The position numbers and the translations under genes were made by a program. Of a stretch of DNA of 64,000 nt, positions 13,611 through 33,303 are shown piece after piece; within the stretch, counting starts at the first letter, position 1; every line of letters begins with the position of its first letter. Source of the stretch: Jannaschia seohaensis (lineage in GTDB: Bacteria > Pseudomonadota > Alphaproteobacteria > Rhodobacterales > Rhodobacteraceae). The stretch covers positions 124,001-188,000 of the forward strand of contig NZ_UETC01000002.1 in NCBI RefSeq assembly GCF_900116765.1, read 5' to 3'. Below the pieces are notes generated by a model. The model made no database searches. It had not been told where the DNA came from and saw nothing but the letters and a program-made list of their open reading frames with translations.

Positions 13611-15257
13611 ATGAACATGACGCAAAGCGATACCATGCAGGCGGACACGGTGCTCAGGGGCGGCACCATCTGGTGCGGGCTGGGCCTGCCCCGGGTCGAG
13701 GCCGTCGCCATGGCCGATGGCGTGATCCTCGCCACCGGCACCGACGCGGAGATCGCCGCCCATATCGGCCCCGACACCCGTGTGATCGATCTGGAGGGCC
13801 GCCTCGCCACGCCCGGGCTCAACGACGCGCATATGCACCTCATCCCCTACGGCACCGCCATGGCCGAGGTCGATCTGCGCCCCACCACCGTCGCCACGCT
13901 CGACGGGCTGCTGGGCGCGCTCCGCGACCGGGCGGCGACGCTCGCGCCCGGCGAGTGGGTGATCGGGCGGGGCTACGACCATTTCCGTCTCGACACCGGC
14001 CGCCACCCCTACCGGGAAGAGCTGGACCAGGCCTGCCCCGACCATCCTGTCTACATCGTCCGAACCGACGGGCATCTGGCCGTCGCCAATTCCCGCGCGC
14101 TGGCCCTGGCCGGGATCGACGAGGACACGCCCTCGCCCCCCGGCGGGCTGATCGAGCGGCAGAACGGCAAGCTCACCGGCCTCGTGGCCGAGACCGGGCG
14201 CGAGCCGCTGATGAACGTCCTGCCCCGCGCCTCGGTCGAAGCCCTGGTCGAGAGCATCGAGCGCGGCGGCGCGGACCTGCTGTCCCGCGGGATCACCTCG
14301 GTCATGGAGGCCGCCGTCGGCATTCGCGACGGCTGGACCGAAATGGAAGCCTATCAGGAGGCCCATGCGACCGGCCGCCTGCCCGTCCGTGTCTACGCCA
14401 CGCTGATGGGAGATAAGACCCGGTCGATCCTGCCCGAGTGCATGGCGGCGGGACATGTCTCGGGCACTGGCGACGACCGGCTGCGGATCGGGCCGGTGAA
14501 GATCTTCACCGACGGCTCGGCCGGGGGCCGGACAGCCGCCATGACGAAGCCCTATCTCGGCGGCGATCCGGACGATCTGGGCCTGCTCTGCCTCTCCGAC
14601 GAGGAACTCGACCGGATGGTCATGGAGGGCCACGAAGCAGGCTACCGCTTCGCCATCCACGCCATCGGCGACGCGGCGATCGAGCAAGTGTTGAACGCCT
14701 ACGAGAAGGCCCTCGCCACCCATCCCGACCCCGACCGCCGCCACCGGATCGAGCATTGCGGCTGGCTGCGCCCCGACCAGATGGCGCGGATGCAGGCGAT
14801 GCATGTCCTGCCCGCGCCCCAGCCCGCCTTTCTATACTATTTCGGCGATCTCTACCTGACCCTGATCGAGCGCGAGCGCGTCACCGCCAGCCACCCGATG
14901 CGCACCTGGATCGATGCCGGGCTCAAGCCCTCCGCCTCGACCGACTGCCCGGTGGTGGAGATCGACCCCTTCGCCAATCTCTACACCATGGTCACGCGCA
15001 AGACCTCCCAGGGCACCGAACTCGGCCCCGAGCATTGTCTGACCATCGAGGAAGCGCTCGACGCCTACACCCACGCCTCCGCCTACGCGGCCCATGAAGA
15101 GCAAATCAAAGGACGGCTCGTGCCCGGCCAACTGGCCGACATCGCCGTCTTCGACACCAACCTCCTGACCTGCGCCCCCGAGGAGATCCTGACCGCGCGG
15201 TGCGACCTGACCGTGCTGGGCGGCGCGGTGGTCTACGAGCGGCAGGCCGCGCAATGA
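13611..15257 (+). CDS. Amidohydrolase family 3 protein (YtcJ-like)
   Basis: Metal-dependent hydrolase of the amidohydrolase superfamily, YtcJ/PF07969 branch, acting on amide or imide bonds. In the 548 residues I see the metal pair in LATPGLNDAHMHLIPYG near residue 73, the KIFTDGSAGGRTAAM stretch near 298 typical of this branch, AIHAIGDAAIEQ near 350, RIEHCGWL near 380 and the catalytic Asp in SASTDCPVVEIDPF near 443. I placed the start at 13611 (MNMTQSDTM), after GGGGGGCG; the frame is open 63 bases further up but reads as Arg/Gly-rich. First gene of the catabolic cluster. Substrate unknown; since a peptide-type importer follows, an N-acylated or cyclic amide compound is likely. Confidence 0.85.
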   Translation: MNMTQSDTMQADTVLRGGTIWCGLGLPRVEAVAMADGVILATGTDAEIAAHIGPDTRVIDLEGRLATPGLNDAHMHLIPYGTAMAEVDLRPTTVATLDGLLGALRDRAATLAPGEWVIGRGYDHFRLDTGRHPYREELDQACPDHPVYIVRTDGHLAVANSRALALAGIDEDTPSPPGGLIERQNGKLTGLVAETGREPLMNVLPRASVEALVESIERGGADLLSRGITSVMEAAVGIRDGWTEMEAYQEAHATGRLPVRVYATLMGDKTRSILPECMAAGHVSGTGDDRLRIGPVKIFTDGSAGGRTAAMTKPYLGGDPDDLGLLCLSDEELDRMVMEGHEAGYRFAIHAIGDAAIEQVLNAYEKALATHPDPDRRHRIEHCGWLRPDQMARMQAMHVLPAPQPAFLYYFGDLYLTLIERERVTASHPMRTWIDAGLKPSASTDCPVVEIDPFANLYTMVTRKTSQGTELGPEHCLTIEEALDAYTHASAYAAHEEQIKGRLVPGQLADIAVFDTNLLTCAPEEILTARCDLTVLGGAVVYERQAAQ

Positions 15258-15319
15258 CACGGCCTGTCCCCCTCCAAGCCCCCCCGCCGACTTGCCTCGA
15301 GGCGCACCAGGCTCCTCTT

Positions 15320-15363
15320 CTTCCCTGTTCAAATATCCCGGGGGTCCGGGGGCTGGCCCCCGG
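15320..15363. repeat. Rhodobacteraceae-type intergenic GC hairpin element
   Basis: After a pyrimidine-rich stretch and TTCAAATATCCC comes CCGGGGGC-TG-GCCCCCGG (15346-15363), a near-perfect hairpin with an almost closed loop. Very similar units (TTCAAATATCC followed by a GGGG/CCCC hairpin) recur between genes in Rhodobacteraceae genomes as I remember them. A partial relative, TTCGAAAATACTCC, lies at about 53148. Here it lies in the 157-base gap between two co-oriented genes and may act as a transcript end or attenuator. Confidence 0.6.
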
Positions 15364-15414
15364 CCCCGTCCTCTCAACCGGCGCCAACGGTTCCAAGAAT
15401 GGAGAACCGGCCCG

Positions 15415-16353
15415 ATGCTGACCCAGATCGTAAATCGCTTGCTGATCTCGATCCCGGTGCTGTTCGGAGTTCTGCTTCTCGGCTTCGGCCTGCTGATCCT
15501 GGTGCCCGGCGATCCGGCCATCGTGATGGCCGGCCCGACCGCCACCCCTGACGTTGTCGACAAGATCCGCGCTGAGATGGGCCTGGACGAGCCGGTCTAT
15601 GTCCAGTTCTTCAGCTATCTCGGGCGCGTTCTGCAAGGCGATCTGGGCCGCTCGCTGATCTCCAACAAGACCGTCGTCTCGGAACTGCTCGCCGCCATCG
15701 GCCCCACGGCGGAGCTGATGGTCGCCTGTCTGATCTGGTCGGTGCCCCTAGGCATCGCGCTGGGCACGCTGGCCGCCGTGTTCCGAGGCGGGCTGATCGA
15801 CCGGACGATCATGGCGATCTCGGTGGCGGGCGTGTCGCTCCCGATCTTCTTCATCTGCCTGATGATGATCCAGTTCGTCGGCGTGAAATGGCAGCTTCTG
15901 CCCTTCATCGGCCGGGGCGGTCCGCTCTGGACGGTGGATGGGCTGCGCCATATCGCGCTCCCCGCGCTGTCGCTGGGCGCGATCTTCATCGGGCCTGTCG
16001 CGCGGATGACACGCTCCTCGGTGCTGGAGGTGCTCAAGCTTGACCATGTCCGCACCGCCCGCGCCAAGGGGCTCAGCGAGACCCGGGTGATCCTGCGCCA
16101 CGGGCTCAGGAACGCGCTAATCCCGGTGGTGACGCTGATCGGCCTTCAGGCGGGCTATCTGGTGGGCGGCGCCGTCGTGACCGAGAGCATCTTCTCCTAT
16201 CCCGGCATCGGGCGGCTCGCGGTGGGCGCGATCCTGAGCTCGGATTTCCCGCTGGCGCAGGGGGCAATCCTGATCCTGGCGCTGGGCTTCATCCTGATCA
16301 ACATGATCGTGGACATCCTCTACGCACTGCTCGACCCGCGGGTGCAGACATGA
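15415..16353 (+). CDS. Peptide-type ABC transporter permease (DppB-like)
   Basis: First membrane subunit of a family-5 (dipeptide/oligopeptide/nickel) importer. The 312 residues begin with the typical first helix MLTQIVNRLLISIPVLFGV and show the family segment GLDEPVYVQFFSYLGRVLQGDLGRS near residue 60, about six helices, and the EAA loop KLDHVRTARAKGLSETRVILRHGLRNALIP near 205. The start at 15415 follows GGAG by ten bases. It overlaps the second permease by four bases (ATGA). Such importers in catabolic clusters often take up amides, opines or heterocycles rather than peptides. Confidence 0.9.
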   Translation: MLTQIVNRLLISIPVLFGVLLLGFGLLILVPGDPAIVMAGPTATPDVVDKIRAEMGLDEPVYVQFFSYLGRVLQGDLGRSLISNKTVVSELLAAIGPTAELMVACLIWSVPLGIALGTLAAVFRGGLIDRTIMAISVAGVSLPIFFICLMMIQFVGVKWQLLPFIGRGGPLWTVDGLRHIALPALSLGAIFIGPVARMTRSSVLEVLKLDHVRTARAKGLSETRVILRHGLRNALIPVVTLIGLQAGYLVGGAVVTESIFSYPGIGRLAVGAILSSDFPLAQGAILILALGFILINMIVDILYALLDPRVQT

Positions 16354-17246
16354 CGGCAGCGACGGAGCAGACCGAAGCGCAGGTCCTCGACGCGCCGATG
16401 CCCGTGCAGCCCTGGTGGCAGAGGCTGCTGCGCGATCCGGCGGCGCTGGCCGCGGCGCTGGTCTTTCTGGCCATCGTGCTCTGCGCGCTTGCCGCGCCGC
16501 TCATCTCGCCGCACGACCCCTTCGCCAGTTCCCGCGCGGTGATGCAGCCGCCGGTCTGGGCCGAAGCGGGCAATTGGACCCATCCGCTGGGCACCGATGG
16601 CCAGGGGCGCGACATGCTCTCGCGGCTGTTCTACGGCACCCGGCTGACGCTGATTATCGGTGTGGTTTCCGTGGCGGTCGGCGGGATGCTGGGCTCGCTT
16701 CTGGGCCTGCTCGCCGCATTCAAGCCGGGACTGGACCCCTGGGTGATGCGGCTGGTGGACGTGATGCTGTCCTTCCCGGCGATCCTGCTGGGTCTCGCGC
16801 TGGTCGCGGTGCTGGGTCCCGGCGCGGGACCGGTCATCGTGGCGCTGGCGATTGCGACGATCCCCGACTGCGCCCGCATCGCCCGCTCCATCGCGGTCTC
16901 GGTGATGAAGCAGGAATATATCGAGGCGGGCCGCGCGCTGGGCCTCTCGGACATGGCGCTCTTCACCCGCTATCTGCTGCGCAACTGCATCTCGTCGATC
17001 ATGATCTTCATCTCGCTGCGCTTCGGCCAGATCATCCTGATCGGCGCGGCGCTGTCCTTTCTGGGCCTGGGCGCGCGCCCACCCACGGCGGAGCTCGGCA
17101 TGATGGCCGCGCAGGGCCGCGATTTTCTTCTCTTCGCGCCGCATATCGCGGTGATCCCCTCGGTGCTGATCTTCGTGATCGTGCTCTCCGCCAACATCCT
17201 GGGCGACGCGCTGCGCGACGTGCTCGACCCCCGTCTCAGATCCTGA
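16350..17246 (+). CDS. Peptide-type ABC transporter permease (DppC-like)
   Basis: Second membrane subunit of the same importer, 298 residues. It has a cytoplasmic N-terminal arm, a first helix at about 30-50, the periplasmic LISPHDPFASS... segment, HPLGTDGQGRDMLSRLFYGTRLTL near residue 74, which is the DppC hallmark, and the EAA loop EYIEAGRALGLSDMALFTRYLLRNCISS near 190. It starts inside the stop of the DppB-like gene and ends 56 bases before the binding-protein gene. Confidence 0.9.
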   Translation: MTAATEQTEAQVLDAPMPVQPWWQRLLRDPAALAAALVFLAIVLCALAAPLISPHDPFASSRAVMQPPVWAEAGNWTHPLGTDGQGRDMLSRLFYGTRLTLIIGVVSVAVGGMLGSLLGLLAAFKPGLDPWVMRLVDVMLSFPAILLGLALVAVLGPGAGPVIVALAIATIPDCARIARSIAVSVMKQEYIEAGRALGLSDMALFTRYLLRNCISSIMIFISLRFGQIILIGAALSFLGLGARPPTAELGMMAAQGRDFLLFAPHIAVIPSVLIFVIVLSANILGDALRDVLDPRLRS

Positions 17247-17302
17247 CCCAAGAACCGGCAAACCGGCGCCCCATCCACAAATCAATAGGGAAGACCAAGA
17301 CC

Positions 17303-18871
17303 ATGAATAAATTGATGACGACAACGGCGGTCCTGCTCATGGCCGGAAGCGTCGCGGCCCAAGAGATCACCATCGTCCGCGAGGTCGACAGCAACAATTA
17401 CGACCCGCACAAGACGACCTCGCGCGCGGCCTCCGAGGTGCTGTTCATGATGGGGGACACGCTGGTGTCGCTCGCCCCCGACATGCAGACCATCCAGTCT
17501 GGCGTGGCTGAGAGCTGGGAGATCAGCGAGGACGCCACCACCTACACCTTCAAGCTGCGCGAAGACGTGCAGTTCTGCGACGGCAAGCCCCTGACCGCCG
17601 CCGATGTCGTCTATTCGATCAACCGCTGGATCGACCCCGACACCAACTCTCCGGTCGCCTGGCGCGCGGGCGAGGTCGAGAGCGTCACCGCGCTCGACGA
17701 CTACACCGTCGAGTACAAGCTCAAGGCGCCTTTCTCGGAACTGCTCTACCAGCTCACCCAAAGCTTCGGGACGATCATCGACCAGGCCAATGTCGAGGCG
17801 CTGGGCGAGGATTTCGGCATCACCGGCTTCAACGGCACGGGCCCGTTCTGCTGGGCCGAGTGGACGCCGCGCGACAAGATGGTGATCACCCGGCATGAGG
17901 CCTATACTTGGGGCGCGCCGTTCCATTCCAATACCGGCCCCGCCTCGATGGCGCAGATCACCTGGCAGATCGTGCCCGAGGAGAACACGCGCACCGTCGC
18001 CATGCTGACCGGTCAGAGCGACGTGACCCAATACATCCCCGATATCGCGCTGGAGCAGCTGCGCGGCGCGCCGACCGTCGATGTGGTGCAGTCCGACCTC
18101 GCCTTCTGGACCTATTTCATGGGCTTCAAGATCGACAAGGAGACGGTCAGCGACCAGGCCGTGCGCGAGGCGATCAACCTCGCCGTCAACCAGGAGGCGA
18201 TGGCCGAGGATCTGTTCTTCGGCGCCGTGCAGCCCGCCTATTCCTATGTCAGCCAGGAGGCGCTGGACTGGAACAGCGACGTCGACGACATCCTGCTGAA
18301 ATACGACCCGGAGCGGGCCAACGCGATCCTCGACGAGGCCGGCTGGGTGCGCGGCGATGACGGCATCCGGTCGAAGGACGGCGTGCGGCTGGCGCCGACC
18401 GCTTACGTCTTCGCCGGCTCCACCTGGTCCAAGATCTCCGAGGCGGTGCAGGCCTATCTGCGCGAGATCGGCGTAGACATGCAGATCCAGGCCTTCGACG
18501 CCACAGTGGCCTGGGGCAAGCTCGCCACGCAGGAGTTCGACATGTTCGGCATGTCCTTCCCCTACGTGTCCTCGGGCGATGCGCTGAACCTCTATTTCCG
18601 GTCGCAGAACATGCCCTCGCCCAACCGCATGAACTGGGACGATCCGAAGACGGACCAACTGCTTCTGGCGGGCGCCACGGCGACCTCCGATGCGGACCGG
18701 GCCGCGGCCTATGGCGAGGTCTTGCAGATGGTGCACGAGGCCGCCGTCTGGCTGCCGCTCTATCACGAGCCGATGGTGATCGCGCAGTCCTCCAAGCTGG
18801 AGCCGGTCGTGCCACACAACATCTACGGCGCCGGGCTCTACAAGGGCCTCGACCTCAAGTTCGCCGAGTAA
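17303..18871 (+). CDS. Peptide-type ABC transporter substrate-binding protein (SBP family 5)
   Basis: Periplasmic receptor of the family-5 importer, 522 residues. MNKLMTTTAVLLMAGSVAAQE is a clear signal peptide. The mature protein shows the SBP_bac_5 order: ...LVSLAPDMQTIQSGVAESWEISEDATTYTFKLREDVQFCDGKPLTAADVVYS, then VREAINLAVNQEAMAEDLF near residue 295 and the C-terminal lobe with ERANAILDEAGW. I chose the ATG at 17303 because the signal peptide starts there, although the frame is open far upstream over the permease gene. It is followed by the perfect palindrome at 18879-18904, which may reduce expression of the genes downstream relative to the receptor, a common arrangement. Confidence 0.9.
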   Translation: MNKLMTTTAVLLMAGSVAAQEITIVREVDSNNYDPHKTTSRAASEVLFMMGDTLVSLAPDMQTIQSGVAESWEISEDATTYTFKLREDVQFCDGKPLTAADVVYSINRWIDPDTNSPVAWRAGEVESVTALDDYTVEYKLKAPFSELLYQLTQSFGTIIDQANVEALGEDFGITGFNGTGPFCWAEWTPRDKMVITRHEAYTWGAPFHSNTGPASMAQITWQIVPEENTRTVAMLTGQSDVTQYIPDIALEQLRGAPTVDVVQSDLAFWTYFMGFKIDKETVSDQAVREAINLAVNQEAMAEDLFFGAVQPAYSYVSQEALDWNSDVDDILLKYDPERANAILDEAGWVRGDDGIRSKDGVRLAPTAYVFAGSTWSKISEAVQAYLREIGVDMQIQAFDATVAWGKLATQEFDMFGMSFPYVSSGDALNLYFRSQNMPSPNRMNWDDPKTDQLLLAGATATSDADRAAAYGEVLQMVHEAAVWLPLYHEPMVIAQSSKLEPVVPHNIYGAGLYKGLDLKFAE

Positions 18872-18878
18872 TCCCCTC

Positions 18879-18904: not shown

Positions 18905-18927
18905 CTCAAAATTCGAGAGCCGCCACC

Positions 18928-20367: not shown

Positions 20368-21350
20368 GTGACCGACGCACCCCTCCTGGACGTCGAGGAT
20401 CTGGCCGTCGAGTTCCATGTCGGCGGCACCGTGCAGCGCGCGGTGCAGGGCGTGTCGCTGAGCCTCGCGCGGGGCCGCACCCTGGGCGTGGTGGGCGAGT
20501 CGGGCTGCGGCAAGTCGGTGACCTCGCTGTCGATCATGCGTCTCGTGCCGCAGCCGCCGGGCGTTTACGCCGGCGGCGCGATCCGCTTCGACGGGCGCGA
20601 CCTGCTGACCCTGCCCGAGGCGGAGATGCGCGCCCTGCGCGGCGGCCGCATCGGCATGATCTTCCAGGAGCCGATGACCTCGCTGAACCCGGTCTATACC
20701 TGCGGCGCGCAGATAGAGGAGAGCCTTTCGGTCCATTCCAACCTCTCGCCCAAGGCCGCGCGGGAGCGCGCGATCGAAATGCTGGACCTCGTCGGCCTGC
20801 CCTCGCCCCGGCAGCGCGCGGACGACTATCCGCATCAGCTCTCCGGCGGGCAGCGGCAGCGGGTGATGATCGCCCTGGCCCTGGCCAACGAGCCCGACCT
20901 GCTGATCGCGGATGAGCCAACCACGGCGCTCGACGTGACCATCCAGGCGCAGATTCTCGACCTGATGGGCGACCTTCGCGGACGCACCGGGGCCGCCGTG
21001 ATGCTGGTCACCCATGATCTGGGCGTGGTGGCGCAGACCTGCGATGACGTGGTCGTGATGTATGCGGGCCGGGTGGTGGAAAAGGCCCCGACAGCCGCCC
21101 TCTTCGCCGATCCGCAGCACCCCTACACGGTCGGTCTGATGGCCGCGGTCCCGCGCATCGACACGGCCGTGGACCGCCTGACCACGATCCCAGGCAGCGT
21201 TCCGCCGCCCTGGTCCAAGATCACCGGATGCCGCTTCGCCTCCCGCTGCCCGCTGGCCAGCGAGAAATGCCGCACCCAGGATCCGCCGCTGCGCGACCTC
21301 TCGCCCGGCCACGGCGTGGCCTGCTGGCACGCGCCGATCGAGGCCGCGGC

Positions 21351-21354
<4 letters not shown>
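20368..21354 (+). CDS. Peptide-type ABC transporter ATP-binding protein (DppD-like)
   Basis: First ATPase of the family-5 importer, 328 residues, with a GTG start three bases after the amidohydrolase stop. Walker [11 protein letters not shown] near residue 43, Q-loop [12 protein letters not shown] near 100, signature [12 protein letters not shown] near 157, Walker [13 protein letters not shown] near 178 and the His switch in [10 protein letters not shown] near 212 are all present. The C-terminal oligopeptide-transporter domain has the Cys-containing [15 protein letters not shown] stretch, which is a hallmark of DppD/OppD proteins and binds a 4Fe-4S cluster in some members. Confidence 0.92.
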
Positions 21355-22408
<1,054 letters not shown>

Positions 22409-22412
<4 letters not shown>

Positions 22413-23968: not shown

Positions 23969-24021
23969 CCCGACGCCGCCTCCCCCACCCAAAGGGTCAG
24001 ACAACCGACAGGAGACCGACA

Positions 24022-25614: not shown

Positions 25615-26289
25615 ATGGACCGCTTCCTCGATACCTTCTTCAACGCCGAGGTCCTGGCGCGCTATGCCCCCTCGATCCTGGACGGGGCCCTGGTGACGGT
25701 GGTGCTCTCGGTCCTGATCGTGCTGAGCGGCATCGGCCTGGGCACCTTGCTCGCCTGCCTGCGCGCCTACCGCATCCGCCCGATCTCCTTCCTGATCGTG
25801 ATCTATGCCGACATCCTGCGCGCCCTGCCGCCGCTGGTGGTGATCCTGGTGGCCTATTTCGGCCTGCCCAATGTCGGCGTCGTCCTGTCGGCTTCGGTCG
25901 TGCTCTATCTCGTGCTCACCCTCGTCCTGGCCGCATTCGCCGAGGAAATCGTCTGGGCCGGGATCACCTCGACGCCCCAAGGTCAATGGGAAGCCGCCCG
26001 CTCGACGGGGCTGGGTTTCACCCAGGCGCTGGTCTGGGTGGTGCTGCCGCAGGCGGTGCGGATGGTGATCCCGCCGCTGACCAACCGCGCCATCGCCATC
26101 ACCAAGATGACGGCGCTGGGCCTCGTCATCGGCGTGCCCGACATCCTTGGGAATGCCTCCACGGCGCAGAGTTTCTCGGCCAATGCCTCCCCGCTGACGC
26201 TGGCGGCCATCGCCTATGTCATCCTGTTCCTGCCCTTCGTGATCGGCTCGCGCTGGCTCGAAGCGCGTTTCGCGCGGCCGGGGGCGTAG
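25615..26289 (+). CDS. Amino-acid-type ABC transporter permease, first subunit
   Basis: Membrane subunit of the HisMQ family, 224 residues, with four to five hydrophobic helices. Family segments are SILDGALVTVVLSVLIVLSGIGLG near the start, DILRALPPLVVILVAYFGLP near residue 64 and the EAA loop TSTPQGQWEAARSTGLGFTQALVWVVLPQAVRMVIPPLTNRAI near 120. Start at 25615, ten bases after the ATPase stop. It pairs with the next permease gene, three bases on. Confidence 0.9.
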   Translation: MDRFLDTFFNAEVLARYAPSILDGALVTVVLSVLIVLSGIGLGTLLACLRAYRIRPISFLIVIYADILRALPPLVVILVAYFGLPNVGVVLSASVVLYLVLTLVLAAFAEEIVWAGITSTPQGQWEAARSTGLGFTQALVWVVLPQAVRMVIPPLTNRAIAITKMTALGLVIGVPDILGNASTAQSFSANASPLTLAAIAYVILFLPFVIGSRWLEARFARPGA

Positions 26290-26292
26290 ACG

Positions 26293-26958
26293 ATGGACGC
26301 GATCCTCCAGCAATTCTTCAACTGGGGCGTGATGGCGCAGGCGCTGCCGCTGCTGCTCAAGGGCCTCGGCATGACGCTGCTGATCTGCGCGGTGGTCATT
26401 CCGCTCGGGGCGCTCGGGGGGCTTCTGGCGGCCCTGGCCTCGACCGCGCAGGCGCGCGCCTTGCGTTGGAGCGCCATCGCCTTCGTTGACCTGTTCCGCG
26501 CGCTGCCGCCGCTGGTCCTGTTGATCTTCATCTATGCGGGCCTGCCCTTTGCCGGGCTGCGGCTGTCGCCCTTCGCGGCGGTCACGATCGCGTTCTTCCT
26601 CAACAACTCCGCCTATTTCGCCGAGATCTTCCGGGCGGGCCTGCTATCGGTCCCCAAGGGCCAGGCCGAGGCCGCCCTGTCGACCGGTCTGACCCCGGCC
26701 CAGACCCTGATCTGGGTGCGCCTGCCGCAGGCCACCCGCAACGTCCTGCCCGACCTGCTGTCCAACGTGGTCGAGATCGTGAAGCTGACGTCCCTGGCGT
26801 CGGTCGTCTCGCTGGGCGAAATGCTGCACGCCGCCGACCTCGTCCGGTCGGTCACCTACAACGCTTCGCCGCTCATCCTGGCGGCGGGGCTCTACTTGCT
26901 GCTGCTGTGGCCGCTGGTACGGCTGATCGGCCGTTTCGAGCGGCGCATCGCCGGATAG
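26293..26958 (+). CDS. Amino-acid-type ABC transporter permease, second subunit
   Basis: Partner membrane subunit, 221 residues, HisMQ family. LLLKGLGMTLLICAVVIPLGALGGLLAAL, FVDLFRALPPLVLLIFIYAGLPFAGLRLS and the EAA loop LLSVPKGQAEAALSTGLTPAQTLIWVRLPQATRNVLPDLLSN are in the expected order. The two permeases are related but clearly distinct, as usual for heterodimeric importers. The gene ends 13 bases before the carbamoyl hydrolase gene, whose start has a good GGAGGA. Confidence 0.9.
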   Translation: MDAILQQFFNWGVMAQALPLLLKGLGMTLLICAVVIPLGALGGLLAALASTAQARALRWSAIAFVDLFRALPPLVLLIFIYAGLPFAGLRLSPFAAVTIAFFLNNSAYFAEIFRAGLLSVPKGQAEAALSTGLTPAQTLIWVRLPQATRNVLPDLLSNVVEIVKLTSLASVVSLGEMLHAADLVRSVTYNASPLILAAGLYLLLLWPLVRLIGRFERRIAG

Positions 26959-26971: not shown

Positions 26972-27898
26972 ATGCGCGAGATCGTGATCGGTGGGGCCCA
27001 GATGGGCCCGATCCAAAAGGCGGAGCCGCGCACAGCGGTGGTGGAGCGAATGCTCGCCCTGCTGGAGCAGGCCGTGGCCGAAAAATGCGACCTAGTCGTC
27101 TTTCCCGAACTGGCGCTGACGACCTTCTTCCCGCGCTGGTGGATGGAGGATCAGGCCGAGATCGACGCCTGGTTCGAGACCGAGATGCCCAACGCGGCGA
27201 CCCAGCCGCTCTTCGACCGCGCCCGCGAGACCGGCACGGCAATCACCTTCGGCTATGCCGAGAAGACGCCGGAGGGGCGGCATTTCAACACGTCGATCCT
27301 GACCGACAAGCAGGGCGCGATCATCGGCAAATACCGAAAGGTTCACCTGCCCGGCCATTCCGAATACGACACCGAGCGCGCCTTCCAGCATCTGGAGAAG
27401 AAGTATTTCGAGCCCGGCGACCTGGGCTTTCCGGTCTGGCGCAATCTGGACGCCTGGATGGGCATGTGCATCTGCAACGACCGCCGCTGGCCCGAAGTCT
27501 ATCGCGAGATGGGGCTGCAAGGGGTGGAGCTGATCACGCTGGGCTACAACACGCCCTCGGTGAACAGCCAGCTGAGCGACGAGGGGCTGGAGAAGCGGCT
27601 CTACCACTCGGAACTCTCGATGACGGCGGGCGCCTATCAGAATGCCTGCTGGGTCGTGGGCGTGGCCAAGGCGGGCGACGAGGACGGGCATCCGCTGATG
27701 GGCGGCTCGATCATCGTGGACCCGGATGGCTTCGTCGTGGCCCGCGCGCAGACCGAGGGGGATGAGCTGATTGTCCATGCCTGCGACATGGATGCGTGCA
27801 ATTTCGGCAAGACCACCATCTTCGACTTCGCGCGCCATCGCCGGATCGAGCATTATTCCCGCATCACCTCCCAGACGGGCGTGGTGACGCCGGAATGA
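26972..27898 (+). CDS. N-carbamoyl-D-amino-acid hydrolase-like nitrilase-superfamily enzyme
   Basis: Predicted to cut N-carbamoyl-D-amino acids to D-amino acid, CO2 and ammonia in the cytoplasm. The 308 residues match D-carbamoylases (about 304) in length and in the catalytic triad: Glu46 in LVVFPELALTTFFPRW, Lys124 in GKYRKVHLPGHSEYDTE, Cys169 in MGMCICNDRRWPEVYR. NDRRWPE directly after the Cys and the GHSEYD stretch are, as I recall, characteristic of this branch rather than of general nitrilases. GGAGGATC lies before the ATG. It overlaps the flavin reductase-like gene by four bases. With the hydantoinase and racemase encoded further on, it completes a three-enzyme hydantoin-to-D-amino-acid route. 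Confidence 0.9.
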   Translation: MREIVIGGAQMGPIQKAEPRTAVVERMLALLEQAVAEKCDLVVFPELALTTFFPRWWMEDQAEIDAWFETEMPNAATQPLFDRARETGTAITFGYAEKTPEGRHFNTSILTDKQGAIIGKYRKVHLPGHSEYDTERAFQHLEKKYFEPGDLGFPVWRNLDAWMGMCICNDRRWPEVYREMGLQGVELITLGYNTPSVNSQLSDEGLEKRLYHSELSMTAGAYQNACWVVGVAKAGDEDGHPLMGGSIIVDPDGFVVARAQTEGDELIVHACDMDACNFGKTTIFDFARHRRIEHYSRITSQTGVVTPE

Positions 27899-28515
27899 CG
27901 GTGCATGTCGACTTCGGCGACCTGGACCCCGCGATCCGCTACAAGCTGCTGACGGCGCTGGTCATTCCGCGCCCGGTGGCCTGGATCACCACGCGGGGCG
28001 CCCAGGGCCAGGTCAACGCCGCGCCCTATTCCTTCTTCAACGTCTTCGGACAGGATCCGCCCCTGGTGGTGCTGGGGCTGGAGCATCGCACCGATGGCAG
28101 CCCAAAGGACACCACCGCCAATATCGCGCGAGATGGGGAATTCGTGGTCAACATCGCGACCCCCGACCTCGTGGAGGAGATGGTCGCGACGGCCAGCGCC
28201 TACCCGACCGAGCGGTCCGAGCCCGAAGCCTTGGGCCTGCCGCTCGCCGCCTCGTCGCGCGTGGCGCCGCCGCGCCTCGCCCGCGCGCCCGTCGCGCTGG
28301 AGTGCCGGCGGCTGGTGGCCCTGAAATTCTCGGCCGAGCGCGATCTGCTGGTCGGCGAGGTGTTGGGGATTGCAGCCCGCGACGGCTTGATCGACCCTGA
28401 GACCTGGCGCGTGGAGTGGGCGGGCGCCTATCCTGTCGCCCGGCTCTTCGGCGACAAATATGCCCGGCTGGAGGAGATCGCCCCCGCGCGCATCCCTCCG
28501 GTCCCAAACCAATAG
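27895..28515 (+). CDS. Flavin reductase-like FMN-binding split-barrel protein
   Basis: FMN-binding split-barrel protein of the flavin reductase-like (DIM6/NTAB) family, 206 residues. Family features are LLTALVIPRPVAWITTRGAQGQVNAAPYSFFNVFGQDPPLVVLGL at the N terminus and KDTTANIARDGEFVVNIATPDLVEEM near residue 70. Such proteins reduce flavin for a partner monooxygenase or carry out their own flavin chemistry. No monooxygenase is encoded in the cluster, so its partner is unclear. It starts inside the stop of the carbamoyl hydrolase gene and is followed by AGGGAGGA and the lyase gene. Confidence 0.85.
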   Translation: MTVHVDFGDLDPAIRYKLLTALVIPRPVAWITTRGAQGQVNAAPYSFFNVFGQDPPLVVLGLEHRTDGSPKDTTANIARDGEFVVNIATPDLVEEMVATASAYPTERSEPEALGLPLAASSRVAPPRLARAPVALECRRLVALKFSAERDLLVGEVLGIAARDGLIDPETWRVEWAGAYPVARLFGDKYARLEEIAPARIPPVPNQ

Positions 28516-28525
28516 GGAGGACGCG

Positions 28526-29461
28526 ATGGCGGCCCTGATAGACAGACAGTCGAGCGGCGTGTTCATCATCGCCGCCACGCCCTTTACCGACGACGGAGCG
28601 CTCGATCTCGAAAGCGCCGACCGCATGGTCGATTTCTACCTCGAATGCGGGGTGTCGGGGATGACGATCCTGGGCATCATGGGCGAAGCGCCCAAGCTCG
28701 CCCCCGATGAGTCGATGACCTTCGCCCGCCACGTGCTGGACCGGGTTGCGGGACGCGTGCCGGTGATCGTGGGCGTCTCGGCTGCCGGCTTGGACAACAT
28801 GGCGCGACTGACGGGCGCGGTGATGGAGGCGGGCGCGGGCGGCGTGATGGTCGCGCCCCAGCCCGGGCTGCTCACCGACCCGAAGCTGAAGGGCTATATC
28901 GCGCAGGTCTGCGCCGCCCTGGGCCCCGATGTCCCGATCTGCTTCCAGGACTATCCGCAGACGACCGGGGTGCAGGTCTCGGTCGAGACGATCATCGACC
29001 TGACCGTAAAGCACCCGCAGATCGTGATGCTCAAGCATGAGGATTGGCCCGGCCTGACCAAGCTCAGCCGCGTGCGCGCCGAGACCGGGGTGGGCGACGT
29101 GCCGCGCATGTCGATCCTGACCGGCAACTCGGCCTTGTTCCTGGCGCAGGAGATGCAGCGGGGGGCCGATGGCGCCATGACCGGCTTCGCCTATCCGGAG
29201 ATGCTGGTGCAGGTCGTGGCCCGCCATCGGGCGGGCGATGTGGACGGGGCCGAGGATCTGTTCGACGCCTATCTGCCCATGGTCCGCTACGAACAGCAGT
29301 TGGGCCTGGGCCTCGCCATCCGTAAAGAAGTGCTGCGGCGCCGGGGTGTGCTGGCCTCGGCCAAGGTGCGGGCCCCGGGCCCGTCGCTGACCGACCGCGA
29401 TCACGAAGAACTGTCGCGCCTGATGGCGCGGCTCGACAAACGTCTGGGGGAGCTGAGCTGA
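28526..29461 (+). CDS. Dihydrodipicolinate synthase-family lyase/aldolase
   Basis: Class I aldolase/lyase of the DHDPS/N-acetylneuraminate lyase family. The 311 residues fold as a TIM barrel with the general acid Tyr143 in CFQDYPQTTGVQV and the Schiff-base Lys170 in VMLKHEDWPG, so it should be active. The usual GTTGE loop is replaced by LGIMGEAPKL near residue 49, which argues against lysine synthesis and for a catabolic 2-oxo acid aldolase, dehydratase or deaminase. The ATG at 28526 has the strong AGGGAGGA before it. Its stop overlaps the SDR start (TGATG). In this cluster it could cleave a 2-oxo acid produced from the amino acid side chain; this is inference. Confidence 0.87.
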   Translation: MAALIDRQSSGVFIIAATPFTDDGALDLESADRMVDFYLECGVSGMTILGIMGEAPKLAPDESMTFARHVLDRVAGRVPVIVGVSAAGLDNMARLTGAVMEAGAGGVMVAPQPGLLTDPKLKGYIAQVCAALGPDVPICFQDYPQTTGVQVSVETIIDLTVKHPQIVMLKHEDWPGLTKLSRVRAETGVGDVPRMSILTGNSALFLAQEMQRGADGAMTGFAYPEMLVQVVARHRAGDVDGAEDLFDAYLPMVRYEQQLGLGLAIRKEVLRRRGVLASAKVRAPGPSLTDRDHEELSRLMARLDKRLGELS

Positions 29462-30249
29462 TGGATCTGGGACTGAAGGATAAGCGCGCGCTGGTGATGT
29501 CGTCGTCGCGCGGGCTGGGGCTGGCTTGCGCCACCGCGCTGGTGGCGGAGGGCGCGCATGTCCTGCTGACAGGGCGCTCGGAGGACGCGCTCAAGGCGGC
29601 CGCCGCCGACCTCACCGCCAAGGGGCCGGGGAAGGCCGATTACGTGGTGGCCGACCTCACCGACGCCTCCACCGTCGAGACGCTGGCCTCCACCGCCGAG
29701 GAGGTGCTGGGCGGCGTCGACATCCTGGTGAACAACACCGGCGGCCCGCCCCCGGGGCGCATGGCGGATGCGGATCTGTCGGTGATGGCGGCGCAATTCG
29801 ACGTGATGGTGATGCGCGTGGCCGAGATCACCGCCCGCCTGCTGCCCGCCATGCGCGAACGCGGCTGGGGCCGGATCGTGACCATCGCCTCCTCGGGCGT
29901 GATCCAGCCGATCCCCAATCTGGGCCTGTCGAACGCGCTGCGCTCCGCGCTGGTGGGCTGGTCGAAATCGCTGGCGAACGATGTCGCCGCCGATGGCGTG
30001 ACGGTGAACATGCTTTTGCCCGGCCGCATTCACACCGCCCGCGTCGACCAGCTCGACGAGGCGGCGTCCAAGCGCACCGGCAAGACGCTGGAGGAAACGC
30101 GCGCGGCCTCCCGCGCGACGATCCCGGCCGGTCGCTACGGCGCCCCGGAGGAGTTCGGCGCCGTCGCCGCCTTCCTGTGCAGCGCGCCCGCGAGCTACGT
30201 CACCGGCGGGCTGATCCGCTGCGATGGCGGCGCCATCAAGTCGGTCTGA
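29461..30249 (+). CDS. Short-chain dehydrogenase/reductase
   Basis: NAD(P)-dependent SDR, 262 residues. The cofactor loop is unusual: SSSRGLGLACATALVAEGA, with SSSRGLG in place of TGxxxGIG. VLLTGRSEDAL follows, the NNTGGPPPG segment stands for the NNAG motif, and the active site shows Ser in IASSGVIQP near residue 143 with no Tyr-x-x-x-Lys; the expected place reads LGLSNALRSALVGWSKSLA, so Asn replaces the catalytic Tyr while Lys seems missing too. This pattern is seen in a branch of SDR proteins with long C-terminal EETRAASRATIPAGRYGAPEE. It may be a reductase with changed chemistry. Coupled to the lyase gene by TGATG. Confidence 0.82.
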   Translation: MDLGLKDKRALVMSSSRGLGLACATALVAEGAHVLLTGRSEDALKAAAADLTAKGPGKADYVVADLTDASTVETLASTAEEVLGGVDILVNNTGGPPPGRMADADLSVMAAQFDVMVMRVAEITARLLPAMRERGWGRIVTIASSGVIQPIPNLGLSNALRSALVGWSKSLANDVAADGVTVNMLLPGRIHTARVDQLDEAASKRTGKTLEETRAASRATIPAGRYGAPEEFGAVAAFLCSAPASYVTGGLIRCDGGAIKSV

Positions 30250-30259
30250 GGGAGGCCCC

Positions 30260-31714
30260 ATGTTCGATCTCGTCATCACCGGCGGCACCGTCGTCACGGC
30301 TGCCGACACGTTCCGTGCCGATATCGGCATCTCGGAAGGCCGCATCGCCGCGCTCGGCCTCGGGCTGGAGGGCGCCGACCGGATCGACGCGACCGGCAAG
30401 CTGGTCCTGCCCGGCGGCATCGAGGCGCATTGCCATATCGCCCAGGAGTCGGCGACGGGTGGCATGACCTCGGACGATTACACCTCCGGCTCGATCAGCG
30501 CGGCCTTCGGGGGCAATTCCTGCTTCGTCCCCTTTGCCGCGCAGCATCGCGGCATGGGGGTGACAGAGACGCTGGACCTCTACGACTCGCGCGCGCAGGG
30601 GGCATCGGTCATCGATTACGGCTATCATCTCATCGTGGCCGACCCGACGGAGAAGGTTCTGGCCGAAGAGCTTCCCGCGGCCTTCGAGCGGGGGGTCACA
30701 TCGTTCAAGGTCTTCATGACCTACGATCTGATGAAGATCGACGACAAGCAGTTCCTCGACATCCTCACCGTCGCCAAGACCCATGGCGCGCTGACCATGG
30801 TCCATGCCGAGAATTCCGGCATGATCGCCTGGATGACCGAGCGGCTGATGGCGGGCGGCCATACCGCGCCACGCTACCACGCGCCGAGCCACCCTGCCCT
30901 GGCCGAGAGCGAGGCGATGAACCGCGCCATCTCGCTGGCCAAGCTGGTGGATGCGCCGCTTCTGATCGTCCATGTGTCGACGCCCGAGGGCGCGGCGCTG
31001 GTGTCGCAAGCCCGGCTGGAGGGCGCAAAGATCTTCGGCGAGACCTGCTCCCAATACCTGTTCCTGACCCGCGACGACCTGGACCGCCCCGGCATGGAGG
31101 GCGCCAAGTTCATGTGCTCGCCCCCGCTGCGCGACGTGGCCACGCAGGAGGCGCTCTGGCGGCATCTCCAGGCGGGGACGTTCAGCCTGTTCTCCTCGGA
31201 CCACGCGCCCTACCGCTATGACGAGACCGGCAAGCTCTCGAACGGGCCGGACGCGACGTTCAAGCAGATCGCCAATGGGATGCCCGGGATCGGGGTCCGG
31301 TTGCCGCTGCTCTTCTCGGAAGGGGTGAACAAGGGGCGGATCACGCTCCAGCAATTCGCGGCGCTGTCGGCGACCAATGCGGCGCGGCTCTACGGGCTGG
31401 AAAGGAAGGGCTCGATCGCCGTGGGCATGGACGCGGATATCGCGATCTGGGACCCGGAGGAGACCCGGATCGTCTCCGCCGAGAACCAGCACGACAACAT
31501 GGACTATTCCGCCTTCGAGGGCTGGGAGGTGACGGGCTGGCCCGTCGTCACGCTCTCGCGCGGCCAGCGCGTCATCGCCGATGGCAAGCTGGTGGCGGAG
31601 CCGGGCCACGGGCAATATGTCCACCGCGCGCGTCCCGACCTGACGGGCCATCCCGGCCACCGCGCGCCCGAGCTGGACCCGGCCACGAATTTCGGCGCGG
31701 AGATCGCCCCGTGA
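30260..31714 (+). CDS. Dihydropyrimidinase/D-hydantoinase-family cyclic amidohydrolase
   Basis: Zinc cyclic-amide hydrolase that opens hydantoin or dihydropyrimidine rings to N-carbamoyl amino acids. In the 484 residues all metal ligands are present and spaced as in D-hydantoinase: His57 and His59 in GGIEAHCHI, the carbamylated Lys150 in TSFKVFMTYDLM, His182 in MVHAEN, His238 in IVHVSTPEGA and Asp314 in FSSDHAPY. Tyr155 is the usual transition-state residue. The ATG at 30260 has GGAGG before it. The end overlaps the racemase gene by four bases. With racemase and carbamoylase it forms a full hydantoinase process set; whether hydantoins, dihydrouracil-like rings or another cyclic ureide is the real substrate cannot be read from sequence. 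Confidence 0.92.
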   Translation: MFDLVITGGTVVTAADTFRADIGISEGRIAALGLGLEGADRIDATGKLVLPGGIEAHCHIAQESATGGMTSDDYTSGSISAAFGGNSCFVPFAAQHRGMGVTETLDLYDSRAQGASVIDYGYHLIVADPTEKVLAEELPAAFERGVTSFKVFMTYDLMKIDDKQFLDILTVAKTHGALTMVHAENSGMIAWMTERLMAGGHTAPRYHAPSHPALAESEAMNRAISLAKLVDAPLLIVHVSTPEGAALVSQARLEGAKIFGETCSQYLFLTRDDLDRPGMEGAKFMCSPPLRDVATQEALWRHLQAGTFSLFSSDHAPYRYDETGKLSNGPDATFKQIANGMPGIGVRLPLLFSEGVNKGRITLQQFAALSATNAARLYGLERKGSIAVGMDADIAIWDPEETRIVSAENQHDNMDYSAFEGWEVTGWPVVTLSRGQRVIADGKLVAEPGHGQYVHRARPDLTGHPGHRAPELDPATNFGAEIAP

Positions 31715-32367
31715 GCGGCTCCATCGTCGTCATCAATCCGAACTCCAACCAGGCGGTCACCGACGGGCTGGACGCGGCGCTGGCCCCCTTCCGCCTGGAG
31801 GGGGCCCCGGCCATCGAATGCGTGACGCTGACCGAGGGGCCGTTCGGCATCGAGAGCCAGCTGCATTCCGACCAGGTCGTGCTGCCGCTCGCCCGTCTGG
31901 TGGAGGCGCGAAGCGACGCCGCGGCTTTCGTCATCGCCTGCTACTCCGACCCCGGCATCGACGCTTGCCGCGCGATCAGCCCGGTCCCCGTCTTCGGCAT
32001 CCAGGAGAGCGGCGTGCTGGCCGCGCTGGCCCGCGCCGACCGGATCGGGATCGTCGCCATCTCCGACGCGTCGGAGCGGCGCCATCGCCTCTATATGCGG
32101 CGGATGGGCGTCTCGGCCCGCATCGCCGGGGAGCGCGCGCTCAACATGAGCGTCGACGAGAGCGCGCGCGGCGCGGGCACGTTCGACCGGCTGTTGGAGG
32201 TCGGCGGCGCGCTGATCGGCGACGGGGCCGAGGCGCTCGTGCTGGGCTGCGCGGGGCTTGCCACCCATCGCACGCGGCTGGAGGCGGCGCTGGGCCTGCC
32301 GGTGATCGACCCGACCCAGGCGGCGGTCGCCGATGCTCTCGGAGCGGTGCTGGCGGCGCGTCTCTAG
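31711..32367 (+). CDS. Hydantoin/Asp-Glu racemase family protein
   Basis: Two-cysteine, cofactor-free racemase of the Asp/Glu/hydantoin family, 218 residues. The catalytic pair is Cys77 in FVIACYSDPG and Cys180 in LVLGCAGLATH, and the N terminus IVVINPNSNQAVTDGLDAAL is the typical hydantoin racemase opening. It would interconvert 5-substituted hydantoin enantiomers so that a stereoselective hydantoinase can use both. GTG start overlapping the hydantoinase stop by four bases. Maleate isomerases share the fold, but the neighbours favour hydantoin racemase. Confidence 0.9.
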   Translation: MSGSIVVINPNSNQAVTDGLDAALAPFRLEGAPAIECVTLTEGPFGIESQLHSDQVVLPLARLVEARSDAAAFVIACYSDPGIDACRAISPVPVFGIQESGVLAALARADRIGIVAISDASERRHRLYMRRMGVSARIAGERALNMSVDESARGAGTFDRLLEVGGALIGDGAEALVLGCAGLATHRTRLEAALGLPVIDPTQAAVADALGAVLAARL

Positions 32368-32385
32368 CCGGGCTAGCGTCGCGGC

Positions 32386-33303
32386 ATGAAAATCGACCGC
32401 CGCAACGACCTCTCCCTTCGCCTCCTCGAAGTCTTCGGGACGCTGATGCTGCACCAAACCACGGTGGCGGCGGCGGAGGAGCTGGGCATCTCGCAACCCT
32501 CCGTCTCGGTGGCGATCAAGCAGCTGGAAGGCCAGGTCGGCTTCACGCTGTTCGAGCGGGAGAAGAAGCGGCTCATCCCCACCGACGACGCGCGCATCCT
32601 GTTCCAGGAGATCGCGCCGCTCTTCGATCAGCTTCGCTCGGTCGAGGCGCGGGTGCGCGATCTGCGCGGCGGCGCGGCGGGCATCATCCGCATCATGGCG
32701 ACCCCGCCGCTCGGGCATTCGGTGGCGCCCCAGGCGCTGTCGGCCTTCATGGCCGCGCGACCGGGCGTCACGATCCAATACGACGTGCGGCGGATGGAAA
32801 ACGTGGTCGACGCCGTGGCCGTCGGCGCGGCCGATATCGGCCTTTGCCTCGGGCTGGAGGCGCATCCGGGACTGGACGTCCAGGTTCTGCGCAACGACCG
32901 GATGGTGGCGCTGATGCCGGCGGATCACCCGCTTGCGCGCCTCAGCGTGGTGACGCCGGGCGACCTAGCCGAGCATCGCTTGGTCGGTCTGGATCGCGCC
33001 TCGCGACTGGGTCTCGTCGTCCAGACAGCGTTCGAGCGGGCCCGCGCGCCCTATCGGCCTCAAGTAGAGGTCCGTTACTGCCACACGGCGGCGGTGCTCA
33101 CCCAGGCCTGCCGGGGGGTCACCGTTGTGGACCGCTACACGGCATCCTTCCTGCCGCACATGACGCTGGCCAGCCGGCCCTTCGATCCCGCCATCTCAAT
33201 TCCGGCCTGTCTGGTCTCGCGGAAGGGCCGGCAGTTGTCGCGCCTCGCGACCGAGTTCCTGGCCCATTTCGGCGACGCGCTCGAATCGGGGGCGACCGGC
33301 TGA
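32386..33303 (+). CDS. LysR-family transcriptional regulator
   Basis: LTTR of 305 residues with an N-terminal winged helix (LRLLEVFGTLMLHQTTVAAAEELGISQPSVSVAIKQLEGQVGFTLFERE, about residues 11-60) and a C-terminal effector domain of the periplasmic-binding-protein fold. It lies 18 bases behind the racemase gene on the same strand, so it is probably made from the catabolic transcript or a weak internal promoter, which would give positive feedback. The likely target is the AT-rich region at 13385-13470 upstream of the whole cluster. The Cys-containing VRYCHTAAVLTQACRGV stretch may shape the ligand pocket. Effector unknown. Confidence 0.88.
   Translation: MKIDRRNDLSLRLLEVFGTLMLHQTTVAAAEELGISQPSVSVAIKQLEGQVGFTLFEREKKRLIPTDDARILFQEIAPLFDQLRSVEARVRDLRGGAAGIIRIMATPPLGHSVAPQALSAFMAARPGVTIQYDVRRMENVVDAVAVGAADIGLCLGLEAHPGLDVQVLRNDRMVALMPADHPLARLSVVTPGDLAEHRLVGLDRASRLGLVVQTAFERARAPYRPQVEVRYCHTAAVLTQACRGVTVVDRYTASFLPHMTLASRPFDPAISIPACLVSRKGRQLSRLATEFLAHFGDALESGATG

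What the first reader, a model, noticed from the sequence alone, without database searches (positions are those of the whole stretch)
13611..33303. A 20-kb catabolic cluster built around a complete hydantoinase set
Eighteen tightly spaced plus-strand genes include hydantoin racemase (Cys77/Cys180), cyclic-amide hydrolase (all five metal ligands plus carbamylated Lys), N-carbamoyl-D-amino-acid hydrolase (Glu46/Lys124/Cys169), two other amidohydrolases, two complete ABC importers, a TPP enzyme, a DHDPS-family lyase, an SDR, a flavin reductase-like protein and a LysR regulator. Hydantoinase sets are known mainly as biocatalysts with unclear natural substrates. Here the extra enzymes point to a full pathway for one N-heterocyclic compound, which I cannot match to any described route.
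Basis: partly seen in the sequence, partly recalled or inferred. Interest (0 to 1): 0.85.

Follow-up and report, generated by a model that had tools for sequence, protein, structure and literature searches.

The report
Extended D-hydantoinase catabolic gene cluster
A bacterium carries a run of 19 genes built around three enzymes expected to turn hydantoin rings into D-amino acids; relatives share the core, often with an unusual sugar-acid-type dehydratase, which offers a concrete way to find out what hydantoinases are for in nature.

Summary
In detail: 19 (not 18) open plus-strand genes at 13548-33303, spacers -4 to 154 bp. The array is two modules. Module 2 (amino-acid ABC importer, D-carbamoylase, flavin reductase, DHDPS-like enzyme, SDR, D-hydantoinase, racemase, LysR) keeps its order in several other genera. 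Its hydantoinase-racemase-DHDPS triad reaches further orders. Module 1 (Amidohydro_3 protein, Opp importer, aminohydrolase) also occurs complete but away from module 2 in 4 of 295 family genomes. All 7 genomes with a module-1 aminohydrolase at least 60% identical also encode the hydantoinase (28 of 295 overall). The TPP gene shows little tie beyond the three linked genomes. The 'DHDPS' is probably not an aldolase: it keeps Schiff-base Lys170 plus the Gln141/Glu172 pair reported as peculiar to L-2-keto-3-deoxyarabonate dehydratase. Best reading: a modular route from an imported cyclic guanidine or hydantoin to a D-amino acid, then a 2-oxo acid that is dehydrated. The substrate is unknown. hyuC-hyuH clusters are known; my literature searches found no description of this wider set. 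The single-pathway claim is partly supported.

The parts
13611..15257 (+). AH3: Amidohydro_3 amidohydrolase (open from ATG 13548; ATG 13611 also possible)
   Evidence: Pfam Amidohydro_3 409 bits; first gene of module 1, same place in L174, L182, L183, L189-L191
15412..16353 (+). OppB-type permease (open from 15292; start chosen at 15412)
   Evidence: BPD_transp_1, BPD_transp_1_N
16350..17246 (+). OppC-type permease
   Evidence: BPD_transp_1, OppC_N
17300..18871 (+). OppA-type binding protein
   Evidence: SBP_bac_5 289 bits
18928..20364 (+). ATZ: aminohydrolase of the chlorohydrolase/8-oxoguanine-deaminase group
   Evidence: Amidohydro_1; best NCBIfam model NF004801 359 bits, below cut-off 416; HxH, later His and Asp motifs kept
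20368..21354 (+). OppD-type ATPase
   Evidence: ABC_tran, oligo_HPY
21351..22412 (+). OppF-type ATPase
   Evidence: ABC_tran, oligo_HPY
22409..23968 (+). TPP-dependent enzyme of the PRK07586 group (benzoylformate-decarboxylase-like)
   Evidence: NF005760 672 bits, cut-off 363; best solved matches are benzoylformate decarboxylases; little tie to the core elsewhere
24019..24849 (+). SBP3: polar amino acid-type binding protein (open from 23965)
   Evidence: SBP_bac_3 109 bits
24846..25604 (+). GlnQ-type ATPase
   Evidence: ABC_tran
25615..26289 (+). amino acid permease 1
   Evidence: BPD_transp_1
26293..26958 (+). amino acid permease 2
   Evidence: BPD_transp_1
26972..27898 (+). NIT: N-carbamoyl-D-amino-acid hydrolase
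   Evidence: 399 bits to solved D-carbamoylase 6lei; Glu46/Lys123/Cys168
27895..28515 (+). FLR: flavin reductase-like FMN protein
   Evidence: Flavin_Reduct 76 bits; nearest solved 2-nitrobenzoate nitroreductase, 131 bits
28526..29461 (+). DHDPS-fold Schiff-base dehydratase-like enzyme
   Evidence: PF00701; Gln141/Lys170/Glu172 in all 163 matches >=45% identity in held loci, overlapping loci counted more than once; alignment to 7c0c/3fkk
29461..30249 (+). SDR dehydrogenase
   Evidence: adh_short_C2 157 bits
30260..31714 (+). HYD: D-hydantoinase/dihydropyrimidinase
   Evidence: TIGR02033 531.5 bits (cut-off 393), NF009941 749.5 (cut-off 647); metal-ligand motifs
31711..32367 (+). RAC: Asp/Glu/hydantoin racemase
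   Evidence: PF01177 187 bits; Cys77, Cys180
32386..33303 (+). LysR regulator
   Evidence: HTH_1, LysR_substrate; next to RAC in L061-L063, L065, L070, L084, L085

Best explanation
The array joins two modules of one catabolic route. Module 1 imports (Opp type) and prepares a precursor; its aminohydrolase most likely removes the exocyclic nitrogen of a 2-amino/imino-imidazolinone (cyclic guanidine) to give a 5-substituted hydantoin (inferred). Module 2 imports hydantoins or N-carbamoyl amino acids by an amino-acid-type ABC importer (inferred). The racemase equilibrates the C5 centre, the D-hydantoinase opens the ring, and the D-carbamoylase releases a D-amino acid, CO2 and NH3 (inferred from strong homology and intact catalytic residues). 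A D-amino acid oxidase or transaminase, near the cluster only in some relatives, makes the 2-oxo acid (inferred). The DHDPS-fold enzyme binds the 2-oxo acid as a Schiff base on Lys170 and, with Gln141/Glu172, eliminates a C4 substituent, as L-2-keto-3-deoxyarabonate dehydratase does (residues shown, reaction inferred). SDR, flavin reductase and TPP enzyme trim particular side chains and are optional. The side chain, and so the substrate, is not identified.
For: Module 2 is in the same order in G134, G279, G010, G162 and G224, and in G063 apart from an SDR that the map does not show; G051 has it rearranged, SDR not found. Same order also in L061-L063, L070, L072, L073, L079, L081, L108 (L072 appears to be the G010 contig). 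Of 19 contig loci with DHDPS >=70% identical, 18 have HYD and 18 RAC within the locus, 12 NIT. HYD and NIT are both in 24 of 295 genomes against 3.9 expected. DHDPS tree: the HYD label needs 11 changes against 26.3 in shuffles, 0 of 500 as low. Module 1 complete and unlinked in L189, L190, L191 and L174; hydantoinase in 7 of 7 genomes with ATZ >=60%, and in 4 of 4 after dropping the three linked ones (p 4e-5; 6e-5 to 3e-4 with assumed size-matched backgrounds). Other ATZ-type proteins (25-52% identical) lie in the same locus as RAC- or HYD-type genes in L037, L050/L107, L058, L099, L175, L193. Gln141/Lys170/Glu172. A DAO oxidase gene follows the cluster in L084; genes similar to an annotated D-amino-acid transaminase in L051 and L195; that transaminase is beside NIT (77%) in Pantoea L169.
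Against: No substrate, expression or enzyme data. Of 18 genomes examined that have HYD+RAC+DHDPS in the locus but no NIT there, 14 gave no D-carbamoylase homologue at E<=1e-40 (many are metagenome bins, so absence is weak); the D-carbamoylase step is not universal. 15 of the 18 have a member of the hydantoinase/carbamoylase amidase family, but so do 6 of 14 control genomes. Glu200, the second base of the known dehydratase, is not kept (Ser202 in the window by my count along). 40 of 105 DHDPS-positive loci lack HYD; 15 of those have another cyclic-amide or N-acyl-amino-acid hydrolase among the seeds tried, 25 none. Clusters without DHDPS/SDR/FLR exist, e.g. Salipiger L172. ATZ is within 20 kb of HYD in only 4 of 14 ATZ places. 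G138 has ATZ and HYD but no NIT at the limit used. The 60% split was chosen after seeing the list. Genomes in one family are not independent.
Confidence: 0.45

Rival explanations
1. Two independent operons that happen to be neighbours in one small group: module 1 (AH3-Opp-ATZ, plus TPP) handles a different compound, and module 2 is an ordinary D-hydantoinase operon.
For: Module 1 is complete without module 2 nearby in L174, L189, L190, L191; among the loci mapped, contiguity was seen only in close relatives (G134, G063, L061-L063) plus Albimonas L085, which lacks TPP and SDR in the map; TPP has little tie to HYD outside the three linked genomes.
Against: All 7 genomes with ATZ >=60% carry HYD; 4 of 4 among unlinked ones, p 4e-5, or up to 3e-4 with an approximate size correction. 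ATZ-type proteins recur in loci with RAC/HYD-type genes in other groups.
Confidence: 0.25
2. A broad hydantoin/N-carbamoyl-amino-acid scavenging operon for nitrogen, with no single substrate; DHDPS, SDR and FLR are loosely associated carbon-skeleton enzymes.
For: NIT-HYD-RAC sets exist without DHDPS/SDR/FLR (L172, L196, L197). Known D-hydantoinases accept many side chains (recalled).
Against: The DHDPS-like gene tracks HYD and RAC across many orders, more than expected of a loose neighbour.
Confidence: 0.17
3. The ring is not a hydantoin but a dihydropyrimidine or a lactam; HYD acts as dihydropyrimidinase or lactamase.
For: The HYD family covers dihydropyrimidinases; DHDPS relatives also sit with 5-oxoprolinase PxpABC-type genes; NIT was not found in 14 of 18 examined triad genomes.
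Against: In the window NIT is a close relative of solved N-carbamoyl-D-amino-acid hydrolases, with their CNDRR motif, and does not pass the N-carbamoylputrescine amidase model (110.6 bits, cut-off 410). A hydantoin-racemase-type gene adjoins HYD.
Confidence: 0.08

Closest known systems
D-hydantoinase (hyu) clusters: hyuC-hyuH of Rhodobacter sphaeroides 2.4.1, Ketogulonicigenium vulgare Y25 and Aminobacter sp. DSM24754 (PMC3546935, passages seen)
   Same: D-carbamoylase gene upstream of the D-hydantoinase gene; in two Bradyrhizobium strains a racemase gene lies between them in the opposite direction. [quoted passage not shown]
   Different: No occurrence of 'dihydrodipicolinate' in its main text; module 1 was not mentioned in the passages I saw.
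L-2-keto-3-deoxyarabonate dehydratase of Azospirillum brasilense (3FKK/7C0C; PMC9795676, passages seen)
   Same: Schiff-base Lys, Tyr replaced by Gln143, and the extra base Glu173, matched by Lys170, Gln141 and Glu172.
   Different: Glu200 not conserved; a separate branch whose nearest solved relative is 3dz1; gene context is ring-opening hydrolases, not pentose genes.
Ergothioneine-utilisation ErtD/ErtE (NCBIfam models)
   Same: Hydantoinase-type plus carbamoylase-type steps; an ErtD-like gene (472.6 bits for the L089 copy, cut-off 600) is in DHDPS loci L038, L039, L056, L089, L133.
   Different: Window HYD scores 248 and 203 bits against cut-offs of 650 and 600.
PDB 3dz1
   Same: Nearest solved relative of the DHDPS-like enzyme (297 bits).
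   Different: Named only dihydrodipicolinate synthase in the entry; I found no functional data for it and did not look beyond these tools.

Membership tests
D-hydantoinase set (hyu) | Hydantoinase passes the D-hydantoinase model with metal ligands and carbamylated Lys position | tested here: met
   531.5 bits vs 393.25; HxH57/59, K150, H182, H238, D314
D-hydantoinase set (hyu) | N-carbamoyl-D-amino-acid hydrolase with Glu-Lys-Cys triad | tested here: met
   399 bits to 6lei; E46, K123, C168
D-hydantoinase set (hyu) | Hydantoin racemase-type protein with two cysteines | tested here: met
   PF01177 187 bits; C77, C180; only 62 bits to the nearest solved member, so substrate unsure
D-hydantoinase set (hyu) | Enzyme activity on 5-monosubstituted hydantoins, D-selective | not testable with these tools
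   needs assay
L-2-keto-3-deoxyarabonate dehydratase type | Schiff-base Lys, Gln in place of the aldolase Tyr, Glu two residues after the Lys | tested here: met
   K170, Q141, E172; alignment, all 163 matches >=45% in held loci
L-2-keto-3-deoxyarabonate dehydratase type | Glu200, proposed base for the C5 proton | tested here: not met
   aligned position is Ser202 in the window, beside invariant Asn201; not filed as a member
4-hydroxy-tetrahydrodipicolinate synthase DapA | TIGR00674 cut-off | tested here: not met
   90.3 bits vs 206.15
8-oxoguanine deaminase | NF006055 equivalog cut-off | tested here: not met
   170.5 bits vs 532
Hydantoin-5-propionate amidohydrolase ErtD | NF058538/NF058539 cut-offs | tested here: not met
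   203 vs 600 and 248.4 vs 650
Allantoinase AllB | TIGR03178 cut-off | tested here: not met
   243.6 vs 357.85
PRK07586 TPP enzyme group | NF005760 cut-off | tested here: met
   671.9 vs 363; its 'acetolactate synthase' label was not tested

The most novel reading that the evidence does not exclude
The array is a pathway for arginine-derived glycation products (hydroimidazolones). ATZ would cut the cyclic guanidine and release ornithine plus a 5-substituted hydantoin; the hydantoinase set would turn that into a D-amino acid. For 3-deoxyosone adducts the 2-oxo acid would be a 2-keto-3-deoxy sugar acid, the substrate class of the dehydratase whose catalytic residues the DHDPS-like enzyme shares; methylglyoxal adducts would give D-alanine and need no dehydratase. 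It would explain an aminohydrolase, a peptide-type importer, a D-hydantoinase set and a 2-keto-3-deoxy-acid-type dehydratase in one array. The chemistry is my inference and recall; nothing here tests it.
Probability: 0.07. Interest if true: 0.88.

Novelty: new variant of a known kind. Interest (0 to 1): 0.6.

Why it matters
The natural role of hydantoinases was stated to be unclear in 2012 (PMC3546935, passage). A conserved partner set, above all a 2-oxo-acid dehydratase-type enzyme tied to the hydantoinase and racemase in many lineages, and an aminohydrolase module whose close copies were found only in genomes with the hydantoinase (7 of 7), narrow the chemistry. The question becomes testable with a short list of compounds and a few gene deletions.

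Tried and rejected
Rejected names: ErtD, allantoinase, 8-oxoguanine deaminase and DapA for the respective genes, all below their cut-offs. Hydroxyproline-type DHDPS: the Ketogulonicigenium DHDPS beside NIT-HYD-RAC and an annotated 4-hydroxyproline epimerase is only 26% identical and lacks the Gln/Glu signature, so it is not the same enzyme. Operator lead: two palindromes upstream of AH3; the exact motif has 2 places in the genome, 5 more with one mismatch, but the six outside the window lie within or at the edges of mechanically listed ORFs, and the motif was not found (2 mismatches allowed) in the stretches upstream of the same genes in G134 and G063; dropped. Promoter-like and terminator-like sites do not clearly exceed shuffles: 1 vs 1.4, 8 vs 5.6 +/- 2.5. 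Viral contigs: none of 4 candidate stretches encodes a relative. A simple gene caller that I wrote misplaced genes in GC-rich loci and missed DHDPS in several; I used tblastn maps instead, though its clusters supplied the seeds. Papers: ten searches, seen as listings with titles and abstract starts, showed no description of this gene set; passages of three papers were seen, the third (PMC4016543, on cyclic amidohydrolase neighbourhoods) with nothing matching. The library lacks most subscription journals.
Full report
What is there. The window is G000:C17:124001-188000 of a 4.84-Mb genome. Spacers run from -4 to 154 bp; six are four-base overlaps. Promoter-like and terminator-like sites are not clearly above shuffled sequence. 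Upstream, on the minus strand, lie genes with glyceraldehyde-3-phosphate dehydrogenase, MFS and solute-binding-protein domains; downstream lie an AMP-binding (acetyl-CoA synthetase type) gene and a sodium:solute symporter gene. These look unrelated.

Two modules. Module 2 (SBP3-GlnQ-Perm1-Perm2-NIT-FLR-DHDPS-SDR-HYD-RAC, in some with LysR next) recurs in the same order in G134, G279, G010, G162 and G224 and in named contigs such as Oceaniglobus indicus L061, Halovulum marinum L070, Defluviimonas denitrificans L072 and Paracoccus L079 and L081. G063/L065 lacks the SDR in the map. G051 has the parts in another order, and SDR was not found in its 20 kb. Roseovarius nubinhibens L077 has HYD and SDR on the opposite strand nearby. 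Module 1 (AH3-OppB-OppC-OppA-ATZ-OppD-OppF) is joined to module 2 in G134 and G063, and in L061-L063 and L085 as far as the 10-kb flank shows. L085 (Albimonas) has no TPP gene in the map. Module 1 is complete, in the same order, and away from module 2 in L189 (G083), L190 (G263), L191 (G138) and the La 6 plasmid L174, whose ATZ coordinates are those of G239:C3.

Co-occurrence. In the 295 sampled family genomes I found DHDPS in 64 (E<=1e-60), NIT in 41 (1e-90), ATZ in 12 (1e-130), TPP in 15 (1e-150) and HYD in 28 (1e-150). HYD lies within 20 kb of NIT at 23 of 30 HYD places and of DHDPS at 12 of 30. Genomes with both HYD and NIT: 24 against 3.9 expected; HYD and DHDPS 15 against 6.1; HYD and ATZ 9 against 1.1; HYD and TPP 4 against 1.4. 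ATZ identities fall into two groups (66-85% and 52% or less, own copy aside). All 7 genomes of the upper group (own included) have HYD; without the three contiguous cases it is 4 of 4, p 4e-5. One of the four, G138, has no NIT at the limit used. A size-matched background could only be approximated (14 of the first 28 handles are at least 4.0 Mb); with assumed backgrounds of 100 to 147 genomes p is 3e-4 to 6e-5. The 60% split was chosen after seeing the list. Relatedness is not corrected for.

The triad. In a wider sample of 398 genomes of the phylum the DHDPS-like gene was found in 30 (E<=1e-70). On a tree of 85 DHDPS rows the HYD label needs 11 changes against a shuffled mean of 26.3, none of 500 shuffles as low. 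One side of the midpoint root holds 44 HYD+ of 51, the other 8 of 34 (quick method, that fork not starred). HYD+ rows come from Rhodobacterales, Woeseiales, Kordiimonadales, Emcibacterales, Sneathiellales, Rhodospirillales, Hyphomicrobiales, Chromatiales and Burkholderiales among others; many are metagenome bins. Of 30 HYD+ rows without NIT in the locus I tested the genomes of 18: 4 have a NIT homologue at E<=1e-40, and 15 have a hydantoinase/carbamoylase-family amidase, a family also found in 6 of 14 control genomes. A genome without a hit may simply be incomplete.

The DHDPS-like enzyme. Its nearest solved relatives are 3dz1 (name only) and then L-2-keto-3-deoxyarabonate dehydratase. The review PMC9795676 (passages) says that in this dehydratase the aldolase tyrosine is replaced by Gln143, that Glu173 acts as a base and is not conserved in other family members, and that Glu200 is a second base. 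Counting along the printed 3fkk alignment, these correspond to Gln141, Glu172 and Ser202 of the window protein. Gln141, Lys170 and Glu172 are kept in all 163 matches of at least 45% identity in the held loci (overlapping loci counted more than once); of the 4 weaker matches, 1 keeps all three and 3 do not. So an aldolase is unlikely and a Schiff-base elimination is likely; the missing Glu200 argues for a different substrate.

What lies around relatives. One search sorted held loci by tblastn with twelve seed proteins; some loci are the same stretch fetched twice. Of 40 loci with DHDPS but no HYD, PxpC-type genes are in 9, ErtD-like in 4, M20 carbamoylase-type in 7 and one Amidohydro_3-type amidohydrolase (D-aminoacylase-like by my reading; no NCBIfam cut-off passed) in 5: 15 loci in the union, 25 with none of the four. 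An RraA-type gene is in 8 of the 40. Amine-removing candidates among 65 loci with DHDPS and HYD: DAO in 1 (L084), class-V aminotransferase-like in 5, D-amino-acid-transaminase-like in 2 (L051, L195); the last also in 4 of the 40. In Pantoea L169, NIT (77%) is next to an annotated D-amino-acid transaminase, with an annotated D-aminoacylase further on. Salipiger L172 has importer-NIT-HYD-RAC-LysR without DHDPS, SDR or FLR. In Methylobacterium L175, ATZ (52%) is beside a racemase, a dihydroorotase-annotated gene and a carbamoylase-family gene.

Mechanism. Shown: gene content, order, intact catalytic motifs, co-occurrence. Inferred: ring opening to an N-carbamoyl-D-amino acid and then a D-amino acid; conversion to a 2-oxo acid; Schiff-base elimination; ATZ acting on a cyclic guanidine to make the hydantoin. 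The last step rests on family chemistry (recalled) and on co-occurrence only. The TPP enzyme I regard as accessory.

Known or new. hyuC-hyuH sets are known, including in Rhodobacter sphaeroides (PMC3546935, passages). Ten text searches (listings seen) showed no paper describing this wider set. I file it as a new variant of a known kind.

Noticed in passing
window 13268-13349: Two palindromic, operator-like sites 65 bp apart upstream of the first gene (AATGTCGGACATT and TTTGTCAGACATT). The first is one of only two exact places in the genome, but the motif was not found upstream of the same genes in two relatives.
   Followed up: partly
L073, L083, L094: Contigs binned as Verrucomicrobia, Flavobacteriales and Nitrospina carry DHDPS copies 57-72% identical to the window gene, with HYD and RAC next to them and in L073 all of SBP3 to RAC: bin contamination or transfer.
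   Followed up: no
L101, L104, L112, L129, L139: A different recurring cluster in Burkholderiales and Enterobacterales (incl. Klebsiella indica): DHDPS-like gene with GntR, 5-oxoprolinase-type genes, an Amidohydro_3-type amidohydrolase and transporter genes. It may be a lactam version of the same logic.
   Followed up: partly
L090, L092, L096, L119: Woeseiaceae-type loci have a PQQ-dependent dehydrogenase gene near the triad, and L090, L092, L095 and L096 a sodium:alanine symporter gene.
   Followed up: partly
L116, L117, L120, L123, L134, L136: In a mostly Burkholderiales group the DHDPS-like gene pairs with an RraA-type gene and no hydantoinase in the locus; some have what look to me like TRAP transporter genes (read by eye).
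   Followed up: no
G136:C8:43782-45224: The hydantoinase match has one in-frame TAA stop: a broken gene or a sequence error.
   Followed up: no
window 33678-38512: AMP-binding (acetyl-CoA synthetase type) gene and sodium:solute symporter gene downstream of the array; they look like a separate acetate-uptake unit.
   Followed up: no
window 48055-48131: tRNA-Arg (acg) on the minus strand.
   Followed up: no
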